Origin: Propioniciclava coleopterorum
GTDB taxonomy: Bacteria > Actinomycetota > Actinomycetes > Propionibacteriales > Propionibacteriaceae
NCBI RefSeq assembly: GCF_011393335.1
Contig: NZ_CP049865.1
Location: 1,506,722-1,570,721 of the forward strand
Reading direction: 5' to 3'
Length of the DNA stretch: 64,000 nt
Shown: piece by piece, positions 19,309 to 23,331 of the stretch
Layout of the letters: every line of letters starts with the position of its first letter
Numbering within the stretch: the stretch's first letter is position 1
Made by a program: the position numbers and the translations under genes
Notes under the pieces: model-generated
What the model was told of the DNA's origin: nothing
Databases searched by the model: none
What the model saw: only the letters and a program-made list of their open reading frames with translations

Positions 19309-19968
19309 TCAGGGCACCATCCGGTAGCCCACCCCGCGCACCGTCTCGATGCGGCGGTCCCCCACCTTGGCGCGCAGGTAGCGCACGTACACGTCGACCA
19401 CGTTGGAACCCGGGTCGAAGTCGAACCCCCACACCCGGCTGAGCAGCTGCTCGCGACTCAGGACCTGGTCGGGATGCCGCATCAGCGTCTCCAGCAGGCC
19501 GAACTCGCGTGCGGTCAGCTCCACCTGCCGCCCAGACGCCTCCGCGCGGCGCGTCCGCAGGTCCAGCGAGAGGTCCCCGCAGCGCAGCACCGTCTCCTCG
19601 GGCTTCGCCGCCGCGCGCAGCCGCAGCCGGACGCGGGCCAGCAGTTCGTCGAACGAGAAGGGCTTGCGCATGTAGTCGTCGGCGCCGCCCTCGAGGCCCG
19701 CGACGGTGTCGTCGACCTCGCCGCGCGCGGTCAGGATGATGACGGGGATGTCGTGGCCCTCGGCCCGCAGCCGACGCAGCACCGCGAAGCCGTCCAGGTC
19801 GGGCAGCCCGATGTCGAGGATCATCAGGTCGAAGTCGCCGCCGCTGGCCAGCGCGTAGGCGGCGATGCCGTCGGTGGCGAGCTCGGTGGTGAACCCGCTG
19901 CGACGCAGCCCCTTGTCCAGGAAGGACGCGATGCGCTCCTCGTCCTCGGCGATCAGGATGCGGTTCAC
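19309..19968 (-). CDS. OmpR/PhoB-type response regulator
   Basis: 219 residues. Receiver domain at 1-115 with acidic pocket EDE (8-10), phospho-acceptor Asp at 52 (MILDIGLPDLDG), Thr in ILTAR and Lys in YMRKPF. The C-terminal winged helix includes LTAREFGLLETLMRHPDQVLS and the recognition/wing end VDVYVRYLRAKVGDRRIETV with GVGYRMVP at the C-terminus. GTG 19968 overlaps the stop of the upstream histidine kinase (GTGA), so the two are translationally coupled. Likely binds the palindromic region 21756-21795 (inference). Last gene of the three-gene operon starting at 21712. Confidence 0.92.
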   Translation of the reverse strand: MNRILIAEDEERIASFLDKGLRRSGFTTELATDGIAAYALASGGDFDLMILDIGLPDLDGFAVLRRLRAEGHDIPVIILTARGEVDDTVAGLEGGADDYMRKPFSFDELLARVRLRLRAAAKPEETVLRCGDLSLDLRTRRAEASGRQVELTAREFGLLETLMRHPDQVLSREQLLSRVWGFDFDPGSNVVDVYVRYLRAKVGDRRIETVRGVGYRMVP

Positions 19969-21398
19969 AGCGGTGCCTCCTCGGACGGGTCGACCGGCCG
20001 CAGCGGCAGGTCGAGGGTGAAGGTCGCGCCCGCCCCGGGCGCGCTGGTCAGGTCGACGTGGCCGTCGTGCGCCTGCGCGATGCTGCTGACGATCGACAGC
20101 CCCAGCCCGGTGCCGGTGCGGCGGGCCTCGCCGGCACCACGCGTCCGGCGATCGAAGATGCGCTCGGCGTCCTCGCGGGTCACGCCGGTGCCCTCGTCGC
20201 GCACCCACAGCCGCAGCCGGTCGCCCTCGACGAGCGACCCGATCCCGATCGTCTGGCCGGGCCCGGTGTGGGCCGCCGCGTTCGAGATGAGCTGCATCAG
20301 GGCCTGCGTGAGCCGTTGCTCGTCGCCCAGGAACGTCGCGTCCGCCACGTGGTCGATCACCCAACGGCGGTCCGCCAGCGGACGCGCCTTCGCCATCACC
20401 TCGGCGACCAGGTCGGCCGGGTGGACGCGGTCGAGCCGCACGAACCCGGGCTCCTCGGACTGCGCGAGCACCGACAGGTCGCCCACCAGCCGGTCCATCC
20501 GCTCGATCTCGTCGATGACCAGGCCCAGGGTCTCGCGCTGTTCGGCGGGGTCGTCGCCCATCAACTCCAGGTGGCCACGCATGATCGTCAGCGGGGTGCG
20601 CAGCTCGTGGCCGACGTCGTGCAGGAACTCGCGCTGCCCCACGAAGGCGGTCTCGAGCCGGTCGAGCATCGCGTTCACGGTGGCGGCGAGCGCGGCCACG
20701 TCGTCCTGCCCCGTCACCTCGATGCGTCCCGACAGATCGGACTCGCTGATGGACTGGGCAGTGGTGCGCACCTGCCGGATCGGCGCGAGGATCCGGCCGG
20801 CGATGAACCAGTTGGCCAGCGTCGCGAGCACCAGCGCCAGTCCGCCGACCACGGCGAGGATCCAGGTCGCCTCCACGGCGTGCCGGCGCTCGTCGGCGGT
20901 GAACTTCGCGATGACGAACGTCGCCGCGCGCGGGTCCGCCGGCACCTCCACCGGCATGGCCGCGACGTAGGCCTGGCCCACGGGGGCGTCGACCATCCGG
21001 TCCCGCGGCAGGCGCTCCGCCGCGGCCCAGGCGACCACCTCCGGTTGCAGGTCGAGCCGCGTGGGCGGCTGATACGGGCTGCGCCGGGCGGCCGCGCCGT
21101 CGATCACGGTGAAGAAGGTCTCGTCGGCGTCGGGGACGTTGGTGCGCAGGTAGGCGGTCAGCAGGGCGTCCACGTCGGTGTACGCGCTTCCCGTGGCGGG
21201 GTCGACCGCCGTGCCGACGTAGGCGCGCAGCTTGGTCGCCTCGTGCCCGAGTTCCTCGGCCACGCGGGCGTCGCCGCGGTTGAACAGGACGGCCGCGACG
21301 ATGGCCACCGAGCCGGCCAACGCGAGCGCCAGCGAGAAGCTCATCAGCCCCACCAGGCGGGCCCGCGCGCTCACGGGCGGGGAATCGGATCGGGTCAT
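19965..21398 (-). CDS. sensor histidine kinase
   Basis: 477 residues: membrane helix 1 at about 14-38, an extracytoplasmic domain of roughly 140 residues, membrane helix 2 at about 178-200, HAMP linker, then the dimerisation domain with the phospho-accepting His 264 in HDVGHELRTPLT. The ATPase part has an N box (ISNAAAHTGPG), DEGTGV and GTGLGLSIV. The extracellular domain has no recognised ligand-binding motif. Its ATG overlaps by one base the stop of the Asp-rich gene (TGATG), and its own stop overlaps the response-regulator start, so the three proteins are made together. Confidence 0.92.
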   Translation of the reverse strand: MTRSDSPPVSARARLVGLMSFSLALALAGSVAIVAAVLFNRGDARVAEELGHEATKLRAYVGTAVDPATGSAYTDVDALLTAYLRTNVPDADETFFTVIDGAAARRSPYQPPTRLDLQPEVVAWAAAERLPRDRMVDAPVGQAYVAAMPVEVPADPRAATFVIAKFTADERRHAVEATWILAVVGGLALVLATLANWFIAGRILAPIRQVRTTAQSISESDLSGRIEVTGQDDVAALAATVNAMLDRLETAFVGQREFLHDVGHELRTPLTIMRGHLELMGDDPAEQRETLGLVIDEIERMDRLVGDLSVLAQSEEPGFVRLDRVHPADLVAEVMAKARPLADRRWVIDHVADATFLGDEQRLTQALMQLISNAAAHTGPGQTIGIGSLVEGDRLRLWVRDEGTGVTREDAERIFDRRTRGAGEARRTGTGLGLSIVSSIAQAHDGHVDLTSAPGAGATFTLDLPLRPVDPSEEAPL

Positions 21399-21712
21399 CA
21401 GTCGTCCGGGTCGTCCGGGTCGTCGACGCCGTCGTCGTCGCAGTCGTCGTCGTCATCGTCGCCCGCCACGCACACGGACCCGGCGCCCGCCGGCTGAGCC
21501 CCGGACGCGGCGGGCGACGGCTCGGTGGCCGTCGGCTCCGGCGTGGGGTTCGTCATGGGCGCGACCGGGGCCGCCGGGGCGCTCGGCGCCACCACGGCCT
21601 CGCCCAGCGCCGGGCTCACCGGACGGACGAGCAGGGTGGTCACCGCCCACACCAGGGCGATCGCCAGGGGCACCAGGAGGAGCACCGGCAGGGGGACGCG
21701 GAGCTTCGGCAT
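21398..21712 (-). CDS. membrane-anchored Asp-rich protein ahead of the sensor kinase
   Basis: 104 residues, not recognised. One N-terminal membrane helix (about 8-30), a Pro/Ala/Thr-rich linker, and a tail with AGDDDDDDCDDDGVDDPDDPDD (written here in parts: AGDDDDDDC then DDDGVDDPDDPDD) holding about 17 Asp in 26 residues and two Cys. By topology the tail is probably outside the cell. Such polyacidic tails bind divalent cations. The DNA encoding it is a GTC-rich simple repeat including a tandem GTCGTCCGG, so length variation by slippage is possible. First gene of the operon with the kinase and regulator (one-base overlap), so it may feed the signal to the kinase. Confidence 0.6.
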   Translation of the reverse strand: MPKLRVPLPVLLLVPLAIALVWAVTTLLVRPVSPALGEAVVAPSAPAAPVAPMTNPTPEPTATEPSPAASGAQPAGAGSVCVAGDDDDDDCDDDGVDDPDDPDD

Positions 21713-21755
21713 GGTTCCACTGTGCCCGACGCGTCCGCCCGATCGCCCCCCGGAA

Positions 21756-21795
21756 GGGTGAGAGTCCTCTCATGTGGGTGAGACCACTCTCACCG
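21756..21795. promoter_or_regulatory. tandem double palindrome, probable regulator binding site
   Basis: Two 20-bp repeats lie end to end. The first contains TGAGAG-TC-CTCTCA (21759-21772), a perfect dyad; the second contains GGTGAGA-CCAC-TCTCACC (21777-21794), also perfect. GGGTGAGA recurs exactly 20 bp apart (21756-21763 and 21776-21783). A third, degenerate copy (CTCATGAG then GCTCACC) lies at about 21800-21816. The block sits 45-60 bases from both divergent starts (21712 and 21857), so it could control the two-component operon and the DUF4956-VTC operon together. Confidence 0.7.
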
Positions 21796-21856
21796 TGCAC
21801 TCATGAGCCGCTCACCTCGGCGCACCAGGGTGGAGACACGACCGAGAGGAGCCCCC

Positions 21857-22537
21857 ATGCTCACCCTGACCGCCCTGGTGGCCATCACCACCGACCTGAT
21901 CGCCGCCGTCGTCCTGGCGGTGGTGCTGTACTACCGCCGGCATCGCCGCCGCGACCTGATGTTCGCCTTCCTCGCGCTCAACGTGGGCGTGCTCGCCGTG
22001 GCGACGGCGCTCGGCTCCGCGCAGGGCACGGGGGTGGGGCTCGGCCTGGGCCTGTTCGGCGTGCTCTCGATCATCCGGCTGCGCTCCGACCCCATCAGCC
22101 AGGCGGAGGTCGCCTACTACTTCTGCGCCCTCGCGCTGGGCCTGATCGCCGGCCTCGCGCCGGTGGCCTGGTGGCTCACCCCGCTGTTCGCGGCGCTGCT
22201 GCTGACCGTCGTCTACGTCGCCGACCACCCGCGCTGGTCGCGCCGGGTCCGCACCCTCACGCTCACCCTCGACGTCGCGGTGCGGGACGCCGACCGCCTG
22301 GAGGCCATCGTCGGCCAGGTGGTGAACGGCCGGGTGACGCGCGCGGACGTCCGCGAGCTCGACCTCGTCCGCGACCTGACGCTGGTCGACGTGTGGTTCG
22401 AGCCGCACGAGAGCCCCGCCCGCCAGGTTCGCACCCCCGCGTCCCCGTCCCTGCCCGCGCCGTTCCCGCAGCGCACCGCCGCCTCGGTGGAGCAGGCCCG
22501 CGGCTGGACGCCGAGCCGGGCGGGGGCCACCCGATGA
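21857..22537 (+). CDS. DUF4956 membrane protein
   Basis: 226 residues. Four to five membrane helices in the first 120 residues (ITTDLIAAVVLAVVLYY, LMFAFLALNVGVLAVATALG, LGLGLFGVLSIIRL, and a pair around 85-120), then a soluble domain with LDVAVRDADRLEAIVGQVV. The GLFGVLSIIRLRSDPISQAE segment is the hallmark of DUF4956. The family is commonly paired with VTC-type polyphosphate polymerases, as here. GAGAGGAG lies 6 bases before the ATG. The stop overlaps the VTC gene (ATGA). Its role is unknown; a membrane partner of the polymerase is a reasonable inference. Confidence 0.85.
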   Translation: MLTLTALVAITTDLIAAVVLAVVLYYRRHRRRDLMFAFLALNVGVLAVATALGSAQGTGVGLGLGLFGVLSIIRLRSDPISQAEVAYYFCALALGLIAGLAPVAWWLTPLFAALLLTVVYVADHPRWSRRVRTLTLTLDVAVRDADRLEAIVGQVVNGRVTRADVRELDLVRDLTLVDVWFEPHESPARQVRTPASPSLPAPFPQRTAASVEQARGWTPSRAGATR

Positions 22538-23331
22538 CCGGCGGCGGCCCGCAGGGCCGGGTCGGGCGCGACGGCGCCGCGCTGGCGGGGCTGGCCGCCC
22601 CGCTGGCCCCGCTCAGCCTCGCGGAGGTGACCGAGTCCGCCGCGCTCCAGACCCGCGTCGATCGCAAGTACCTGATCCCCACGGCGACGCTCACCCGCCT
22701 GGTGGCGGGCCTGGGGCCCGGCCTGGGCGTCCTGGCCATCGACGGGCGCCGGGTCTTCGGCTACGAGTCGATCTACTTCGACACTCCCGACTTCGGCATG
22801 TTCCGCGATCACGTGCAGGGCCGCCGGCTCCGCACCAAGGTCCGGACGCGCCGCTACGTCGACTCGGGCCTGACGATGCTCGAGGTCAAGGAGAAGGGCG
22901 GGCGCGGGCAGACGGTCAAGCACCGGACGCCGTGGTCGGGCGCCGACCTCGACCGGCTCGTCGGGCGCGACGACGGCCGCGGCTTCGTGGACGCCGTCCT
23001 GGCGCCCCGGCACCGTGCCGACGACCTGCGGCCGGCCCTGGTCAGCCGCTACCGCCGCACCACGTTCGTCGACCCGGACGCCGGCCTGCGGCTGACCTGC
23101 GACGTCGACCTGTCCTTCGACGGGTCCGGACGCTCGGTGCAGGTGCCGGCGGGCCGCGTCCTGGTCGAGACGAAGTCGGCCACGGGGCGCAGCGAGGCCG
23201 ACCGGCTGCTGCACCGGCTCGGGCAGCGCGAGATCCCGATCAGCAAGTACTGCGCGGGCGTGGCGCTGACCGCCGGGCTGCCCGCGAACCGCTGGCACCG
23301 GACGCTGACCCGCTACCTGGCGGCCGCCTGA
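22534..23331 (+). CDS. VTC-domain (polyphosphate polymerase-type) protein
   Basis: 265 residues. The VTC domain is a CYTH-like tunnel enzyme that polymerises ATP gamma-phosphate into polyphosphate in yeast Vtc4. Basic and acidic tunnel residues are visible: QTRVDRKYLIP, YESIYFDTPDFGMF, RRLRTKVRTRRY, MLEVKEKGGRG, and the C-terminal VLVETKSATG with IPISKYCAG. Length fits stand-alone bacterial members. Starts by ATGA overlap with the DUF4956 gene, so the pair acts as a unit. Polyphosphate synthesis is inferred from the fold, not shown. Confidence 0.85.
   Translation: MTGGGPQGRVGRDGAALAGLAAPLAPLSLAEVTESAALQTRVDRKYLIPTATLTRLVAGLGPGLGVLAIDGRRVFGYESIYFDTPDFGMFRDHVQGRRLRTKVRTRRYVDSGLTMLEVKEKGGRGQTVKHRTPWSGADLDRLVGRDDGRGFVDAVLAPRHRADDLRPALVSRYRRTTFVDPDAGLRLTCDVDLSFDGSGRSVQVPAGRVLVETKSATGRSEADRLLHRLGQREIPISKYCAGVALTAGLPANRWHRTLTRYLAAA

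What the first reader, a model, noticed from the sequence alone, without database searches (positions are those of the whole stretch)
21756..21816. Tandem double palindrome between a two-component operon and a DUF4956-VTC operon
Two perfect dyads sit in 20-bp repeats (about two helical turns), with a third degenerate copy, midway between divergent operons for Asp-rich protein/kinase/regulator and a DUF4956-VTC polyphosphate-polymerase unit. It is a strong candidate for the regulator's own binding site, and if so the signal system controls polyphosphate-type chemistry. I do not know a published link of this exact arrangement.
Basis: partly seen in the sequence, partly recalled or inferred. Interest (0 to 1): 0.72.

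Follow-up and report, generated by a model that had tools for sequence, protein, structure and literature searches.

The report
Two-component switch for polyphosphate polymerase
The paired DNA palindrome very probably is the docking site through which a bacterial sensor system switches on both itself and a neighbouring predicted polyphosphate-making membrane unit, and the same wiring recurs in distant relatives.

Summary
Two perfect dyads, TGAGAG-TC-CTCTCA (21759-21772) and GGTGAGA-CCAC-TCTCACC (21777-21794), lie between an Asp-rich/kinase/regulator operon and a DUF4956-VTC operon. One dyad alone would be unremarkable. Comparative genomics makes them the response regulator's box. TGAGA-N4-TCTCA occurs 43 times in 24 of 40 relatives' kinase-regulator loci (reversed control 0; resampled mean 0.3), before kinase genes and small membrane proteins with Asp-rich or Ser/Pro tails. 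It lies upstream of DUF4956-VTC in 10 of 56 loci examined; all 10 genomes carry the regulator. In eight of eight fetched genomes of another family the genes stand collinear (Asp-rich, kinase, regulator, box, DUF4956, VTC; box strict in four, degenerate in four). Promoter matrices from hand-picked sites of other genomes rank box 2 on the + strand and box 1 on the - strand first in the window, so each box fits one promoter. Best explanation: phosphorylated regulator binds both boxes, activates DUF4956-VTC and autoregulates its own operon. Binding, polyphosphate synthesis and the signal are untested. CusRS is the nearest known architecture; this gene set was not found in the papers searched.

The parts
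19309..19968 (-). OmpR/PhoB-family response regulator (219 aa)
   Evidence: PF00072 and PF00486; recognition-helix stretch SN[VI][VI][DE][VT][YF][VI]R in 39 of 40 relatives' regulators (the 40th, L161, is cut there) and in none of 9 own paralogs
19965..21398 (-). Membrane histidine kinase (477 aa; HAMP, HisKA, HATPase)
   Evidence: Pfam; relatives family-wide
21398..21712 (-). Small protein: N-terminal hydrophobic helix, Pro/Ser/Thr linker, Asp-rich tail (104 aa)
   Evidence: ORF; no Pfam or NCBIfam family; similar architecture beside the box in relatives
21719..21724 (-). Predicted -10 element CACAGT of the Asp-rich/kinase/regulator promoter; start codon directly downstream (21712), leaderless by prediction
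   Evidence: offset 48 from box and start codon at offset 60, as in 8 of 16 and 9 of 16 relatives' kinase promoters
21759..21772 (-). Box 1, TGAGAG-N2-CTCTCA palindrome; predicted regulator site serving the minus-strand operon
   Evidence: top hit of kinase-promoter matrix in the window, 31.6 against 6.0 for the best unrelated site; matrix from 11 of 16 sites
21777..21794 (+). Box 2, GGTGAGA-N4-TCTCACC palindrome; predicted regulator site serving DUF4956-VTC
   Evidence: top hit of small-protein/VTC-promoter matrix in the window, 34.2 against 1.7 for the best unrelated site
21800..21815 (+). Half-sites CTCAT (21800-21804) and CTCAC (21811-21815), 11-bp ladder continuing from box 2
   Evidence: same offsets (21-25, 32-36) in relatives' promoters; matrix without the palindrome ranks this position 2nd of 127,908
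21826..21831 (+). Predicted -10 element CAGGGT of the DUF4956-VTC promoter
   Evidence: offset 47 from box 2, the position of the -10-like TTGACT-type element in relatives
21857..22537 (+). DUF4956 membrane protein (226 aa; five helices then a beta-alpha-beta-beta domain in a moderate-confidence model)
   Evidence: PF16316, 184.5 bits; AlphaFold2 model, mean pLDDT 69.6, pTM 0.46
22534..23331 (+). VTC-domain protein, predicted polyphosphate polymerase (265 aa)
   Evidence: PF09359, 95.4 bits; profile matches yeast Vtc4 structures, E 7.9e-12

Best explanation
The site is a pair of operators for the response regulator encoded at 19309-19968. Each operator is a TGAGA-N4-TCTCA palindrome, and box 2 is followed by an 11-bp ladder of half-sites that takes the place of the -35 region. 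The kinase senses an unknown envelope signal and phosphorylates the regulator. The regulator binds box 2 and activates DUF4956-VTC, and binds box 1 and autoregulates the Asp-rich/kinase/regulator operon. DUF4956-VTC is predicted to make polyphosphate at the membrane. Shown here by comparison: conservation of the box, its link to this regulator and, in part of the relatives, to DUF4956-VTC, and the promoter geometry. Inferred: binding, direction of control (activation), polyphosphate synthesis, and the signal.
For: Box in relatives' kinase-regulator loci: 43 sites in 24 of 40 loci, reversed control 0, 30 Markov resamples mean 0.3, maximum 2. Family-wide: 302 matches against 18 for the reversed control; 126 of 198 genomes against 15 of 198. 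73 of 89 genomes with a kinase match of E below 1e-50 have the pattern against 53 of 109 without (Fisher 1.5e-6, not corrected for phylogeny). Recognition helix conserved with the box. Box within 250 bp upstream of DUF4956 in 10 of 56 loci, and all 10 genomes carry the regulator ortholog. Eight of eight fetched genomes of family f49 have Asp-rich, HK, RR, DUF4956 and VTC collinear, with a box between RR and DUF4956 that is strict in 4 and degenerate in 4. Matrix test assigns box 2 to the plus and box 1 to the minus promoter. The minus promoter matches the commonest kinase-promoter offsets exactly.
Against: No binding data exist. 46 of 56 DUF4956 loci lack the strict box, including ones in genomes that do carry the regulator (G029, G057, G122). 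16 of 40 kinase-regulator loci lack a strict box, though several of those contigs are cut short. 53 of 109 genomes without a kinase match at my threshold still hold at least one match to the pattern; at least one of them, G024, has a regulator ortholog and a fragmented kinase. The co-occurrence test does not correct for relatedness. The matrices were built from hand-picked sites, and the kinase matrix leaves out 5 of the 16 aligned promoters, whose geometry differs; without the palindrome that matrix ranks the box-1 position only 72nd of 127,908.
Confidence: 0.85

Rival explanations
1. The boxes regulate only the Asp-rich/kinase/regulator operon (autoregulation), and DUF4956-VTC merely lies downstream with its own promoter.
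For: Many relatives' kinase-regulator loci carry the box with no DUF4956 or VTC match in the stretch fetched. 46 of 56 DUF4956 loci lack the strict box.
Against: Box 2 with its ladder and -10 fits the plus-strand promoter class. The box precedes DUF4956-VTC far from the kinase locus in G021 and G027 and on another contig in G053, and between RR and DUF4956 in f49.
Confidence: 0.08
2. A different transcription factor, for example a LacI-type repressor, binds the palindromes.
For: A TGAGAGCGCTCTCA site elsewhere in the same genome looks like a LacI-type operator (the label is recalled).
Against: The box tracks the kinase-regulator locus across families. The ladder and the fixed distance to a -10 are activator geometry. 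I did not search the region for a LacI gene.
Confidence: 0.05
3. The palindromes act in RNA or DNA structure (terminator, attenuator, recombination site).
For: Perfect dyads can form hairpins; I did not fold them.
Against: No terminator-like site in 21650-21900. By the predicted -10 elements both boxes lie upstream of the transcription starts.
Confidence: 0.02

Closest known systems
CusRS/CusCFBA of E. coli (heavy-metal CusR/CopR/CzcR regulators)
   Same: Operator in the intergenic region of divergent operons, one of them the two-component operon; the regulator turns on both (passage of PMC10920338). RR and HK score best against the heavy-metal models TIGR01387/TIGR01386 among NCBIfam. The CusR box is a dyad of similar layout (recalled).
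   Different: Below the curated cut-offs of both models; different half-site; predicted targets are an Asp-rich protein and DUF4956-VTC, not a metal efflux pump.
PhoP of M. tuberculosis / PhoB-type direct-repeat activators
   Same: OmpR/PhoB fold; PhoP recognises direct repeats of 7-bp motifs with a 4-bp spacer (start of the abstract of PMC4832192 in the listing), which matches the 11-bp ladder here.
   Different: Here a palindrome precedes the ladder and the repeat is CTCAY (PhoP's TCACAGC is recalled; one search shows only that the paper holds that word).
CutRS/CssRS of Streptomyces
   Same: Actinobacterial two-component systems with a defined regulator motif.
   Different: The CutR motif is TAWATAAA and the cutRS promoter was not bound by CutR in the SPR assay (passages of PMC12802291).
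Pel-linked accessory genes cotH, polyphosphate polymerase, DUF4956 in streptococci, clostridia and bifidobacteria
   Same: The same DUF4956 and polyphosphate-polymerase pair (passages of PMC7112168).
   Different: Linked there to pel exopolysaccharide genes and cotH; no two-component box is described in the passages seen.
Yeast VTC complex (Vtc4)
   Same: The VTC profile aligns to Vtc4 structures, E 7.9e-12, and shared charged positions are invariant.
   Different: Pfam shows only the VTC domain, no SPX domain; the partner gene is DUF4956; activity untested.

Membership tests
OmpR/PhoB response regulators | Receiver plus winged-helix Trans_reg_C | tested here: met
   97.2 and 97.1 bits, above cut-offs
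Heavy-metal response regulator subfamily TIGR01387 | Score above curated cut-off 279.2 | tested here: not met
   226.1 bits
Heavy-metal sensor kinase TIGR01386 | Score above curated cut-off 292.55 | tested here: not met
   184 bits
MtrA equivalog NF040689 | Score above cut-off 300 | tested here: not met
   194.7 bits
CseB equivalog NF041733 | Score above cut-off 350 | tested here: not met
   188.5 bits
PhoB equivalog TIGR02154 | Score above cut-off 296.2 | tested here: not met
   188 bits
VTC polyphosphate polymerases | VTC/CYTH domain | tested here: met
   PF09359 95.4 bits, cut-off 23; Vtc4 profile match
VTC polyphosphate polymerases | Conserved basic/acidic tunnel residues | tested here: inconclusive
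   23 invariant columns in 18 sequences, with R41, K45, K102, R104, R106, E117, K119, K129, R131, R186, E212, K214, S237 and K238 among them, in a profile that aligns to Vtc4; that these are the catalytic tunnel residues is recalled, not tested
VTC polyphosphate polymerases | Polyphosphate synthesis from ATP | not testable with these tools
   needs an assay
DUF4956 | PF16316 domain | tested here: met
   184.5 bits, cut-off 30.6
Regulon of this two-component system | Box at the system's own locus in relatives | tested here: met
   24 of 40 loci, reversed control 0 of 40
Regulon of this two-component system | Box upstream of DUF4956-VTC in relatives | tested here: met
   10 of 56 loci strict, 4 more degenerate; the other loci lack it
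Regulon of this two-component system | Direct binding by the regulator | not testable with these tools
   needs EMSA or DAP-seq
Pel-linked VTC/CotH clusters | pel or cotH genes alongside | not tested
   Pfam was run on 7 local proteins only

The most novel reading that the evidence does not exclude
A surface-polyanion switch: one sensor system jointly controls a membrane-anchored polyaspartate protein and a minimal membrane polyphosphate polymerase/exporter (DUF4956 as the membrane pore, VTC as the enzyme). It would tune how much organic and inorganic polyanion the cell puts at its surface, for example to bind cations, with the Asp-rich tail feeding back on the kinase.
Probability: 0.2. Interest if true: 0.82.

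Novelty: new variant of a known kind. Interest (0 to 1): 0.62.

Why it matters
DUF4956-VTC pairs are common in this family (75 of 198 genomes have a DUF4956 match), but I found no report of their regulation in the searches made. A conserved sensor system, a conserved DNA box and a small acidic membrane protein tied to the same enzyme give a route to learn when and why bacteria make VTC-type polyphosphate. They also give a genome-wide search key for the regulon across actinobacterial families.

Tried and rejected
Single-dyad significance: rejected as evidence, because 501 dyads of this kind occur in the window. The 20-bp phasing as the meaningful feature: rejected, since spacing differs in relatives. 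Membership in the heavy-metal, MtrA, CseB and PhoB models: none reached its cut-off. CutR motif: does not match. Kinase sensor-region model from a single sequence: pLDDT 53.5, no conclusion drawn. The sensor region is little conserved in 44 aligned kinases. Fold search with the DUF4956 model: no match with E at or below 0.001, best 0.17, so no fold relative is claimed. Single-sequence PDB search with VTC gave only weak unrelated hits, best E 0.034; the profile search found Vtc4. Simple promoter/terminator scan: nothing. Literature searches: DUF4956, VTC domain/CotH/polyphosphate, TGAGA/TCTCA with response regulator, CutRS, aspartate-rich with two-component, CusR box/HprR, polyaspartate/kinase (no paper), VTC domain with kinase/regulator. 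I looked at the listings, several of them capped at 8-20 rows, and at passages of five papers: PMC7112168, PMC12345266, PMC12802291, PMC10920338 and PMC2879425. None showed this arrangement; most subscription journals are not in that library.

Rows left out: of the 42 promoters aligned as small-protein or kinase promoters, the matrices use 24 of 26 small-protein promoters (without L173 and the second L190 site) plus 7 DUF4956 promoters, and 11 of 16 kinase promoters (without L167, L176, L180, L189, L190). The 42 were themselves picked by hand from the boxes.

Full report
What is there. The 144-bp intergenic region 21713-21856 separates an Asp-rich/kinase/regulator operon on the minus strand from DUF4956-VTC on the plus strand. 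It holds two perfect dyads: TGAGAG-TC-CTCTCA at 21759-21772 and GGTGAGA-CCAC-TCTCACC at 21777-21794. One such dyad is ordinary in this window (501 with arms of 6 or more and loops up to 8), so the case rests on comparison. In the whole 3.67-Mb genome the pattern GGTGAGA-N3-5-TCTCA gives four hits, three at this locus and one elsewhere. TGAGANNNNTCTCAT gives one.

Is it the regulator's box? Kinase matches were found across the family: 186 of 198 genomes at E up to 1e-30. By my threshold of E below 1e-50, read from that listing, 89 genomes have a kinase ortholog and 109 do not. I fetched kinase-regulator loci from 40 of the 88 other genomes with such a match: the 20 best-scoring plus 20 further down, picked by hand; several contigs are short. 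TGAGA-N4-TCTCA occurs 43 times in 24 of the 40 loci (444,411 bp). The reversed pattern never occurs, and 30 first-order resamples give a mean of 0.3 and at most 2. Family-wide, TGAGANNNNTCTCAT gives 302 matches (a full palindrome counts on both strands) in 126 of 198 genomes, against 18 matches in 15 of 198 for the reversed control. It is commoner where the kinase ortholog is present: 73 of 89 against 53 of 109. That test is not corrected for phylogeny, and the threshold misplaces at least G024, which has a regulator ortholog and a fragmented kinase. In a class-wide sample the strict ATGAGAGNNCTCTCAT is in 52 of 394 genomes, and I saw no control match in the listing.

The regulator's recognition-helix stretch is shared by 39 of the 40 regulators (the 40th, L161, is cut at that point) and by none of the nine OmpR-type paralogs of the window's genome. 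The regulators in these loci are mostly 57-70% identical to the window's; L175 shows 43% in the segment reported.

What the box controls in relatives. It precedes the kinase gene itself and one or two small proteins with an N-terminal hydrophobic segment, a Pro/Ser/Thr-rich linker and a low-complexity tail. The tail is Asp-rich in some genomes and Ser/Pro-rich in others. Some boxes precede other kinds of gene. The window's Asp-rich protein belongs with the small proteins by architecture; no family model matches it.

Promoter geometry. I aligned 26 small-protein promoters and 16 kinase promoters picked by hand. Taking the first base of the box as 0, small-protein promoters favour CTCAT at 32-36 (50-73% per base) and T at 22 (65%), an 11-bp ladder, with a -10-like element near 47-52. 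Kinase promoters have a [TC]ANNNT element at offset 48 in 8 of 16 (mean 0.3 per offset) and a start codon at offset 60 in 9 of 16. In the window, the minus strand from box 1 has CACAGT at 48 and ATG at 60. The plus strand from box 2 has CTCAY at 10, 21 and 32 and CAGGGT at 47. Matrices were built only from other genomes: 31 small-protein/VTC sites, and 11 of the 16 kinase promoters, those with the common geometry. They were run over both strands of the 64-kb window. The first ranks box 2 plus strand first (34.2; best unrelated site 1.7). The second ranks box 1 minus strand first (31.6; best unrelated 6.0). A matrix of the ladder and -10 without the palindrome ranks the box-2 position second of 127,908. 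The kinase-type matrix without the palindrome is weaker: the box-1 position ranks 72nd of 127,908.

Link to DUF4956-VTC. I examined 56 DUF4956 loci: those given a locus (the best-scoring ones) and L005. The box (TGAGA or TAAGA, N4, TCTCA) lies within 250 bp upstream in 10: in G000, G021, G027, G053, G596, G602, G608, G616, G621 and G634. All ten carry the regulator ortholog. In G021 and G027 the kinase-regulator locus is hundreds of kilobases away, and in G053 it is on another contig, so the link is not mere adjacency. In family f49, 12 genomes had a match and I fetched 8. All eight have kinase, regulator, DUF4956 and VTC collinear with a box ladder between regulator and DUF4956, strict in L297, L299, L300 and L302 and degenerate in L298, L301, L303 and L304. 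An Asp-rich reading frame precedes the kinase in all eight. Against the link: 46 of 56 loci lack the strict box, including ones in genomes that have the regulator (G029, G057, G122). CACA-type repeats at 11-bp spacing appear in 24 of 56 loci, all 24 among the 35 from the window's family (shuffled mean 0.7 of 56).

The enzyme. The VTC protein has PF09359 at 95.4 bits. A profile of 18 relatives aligns to yeast Vtc4 structures (E 7.9e-12) with charged positions invariant. That supports, but does not show, polyphosphate synthesis. DUF4956 gave a moderate model (mean pLDDT 69.6) of five helices and a beta-alpha-beta-beta domain, with no significant structural match.

Mechanism. The most likely reading is that phosphorylated regulator binds both boxes, with box 2 and its ladder replacing the -35 of the DUF4956-VTC promoter and box 1 autoregulating the minus operon. 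Activation rather than repression is inferred from the geometry. The nearest known layout is CusR acting on divergent cusRS and cusCFBA from one intergenic box (passage of PMC10920338). Direct repeats of 7-bp motifs with 4-bp spacers are known for M. tuberculosis PhoP (start of the abstract of PMC4832192 in the listing).

Novelty. An OmpR-type system with its operator between divergent operons is a known kind. The box, the ladder and the regulated set (acidic membrane protein plus DUF4956-VTC) were not found in the searches listed under Tried and rejected, so I call it a new variant. The species of the window and of the G-numbered genomes were not identified.

Noticed in passing
L090 (G000:C1:2386379-2387074, minus) and 18-bp match at G000:C1:2387138-2387155: A second DUF4956-VTC pair of the same genome (59% identical DUF4956) has GTTCACCTTCCGTTAACC upstream, the genome's only match to GTTNACC-N4-GTTNACC, resembling the PHO box of Streptomyces (motif recalled).
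   Followed up: partly
L086-L118 upstream regions: 24 of 56 DUF4956 loci examined carry CACA direct repeats at 11-bp spacing (shuffled mean 0.7), suggesting OmpR/PhoB-type control by another regulator.
   Followed up: partly
L005-L083, e.g. L021, L038, L041, L047, L070, L071, L073, L074, L076: 22 of 79 VTC loci have an OmpR-type regulator match within 3 kb upstream or 3.5 kb downstream of VTC. In eight, regulator and kinase lie upstream of VTC on the same strand, and in L073 they are divergent from it. At 32-41% identity these are unlikely to be orthologs of the window's system.
   Followed up: partly
L004 (G000:C1:2422519): TGAGAGCGCTCTCA with a second similar site nearby, upstream of an ORF that looks like a sugar-binding lipoprotein; looks like a LacI-family operator rather than this regulon (labels recalled).
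   Followed up: no
L163, L171, L175, L181, L183, L185, L186: Box-preceded small membrane proteins in other genomes have Ser/Pro repeat tails in place of Asp-rich tails.
   Followed up: no
L100/L139 (G057): A different kinase-regulator pair (RR 43% identical) lies next to DUF4956-VTC without the box.
   Followed up: no
G596 and G602 (L305, L306, L312, L313): In these two f50 genomes the regulator ortholog (65%) lies about 10 kb from a boxed DUF4956-VTC pair.
   Followed up: no
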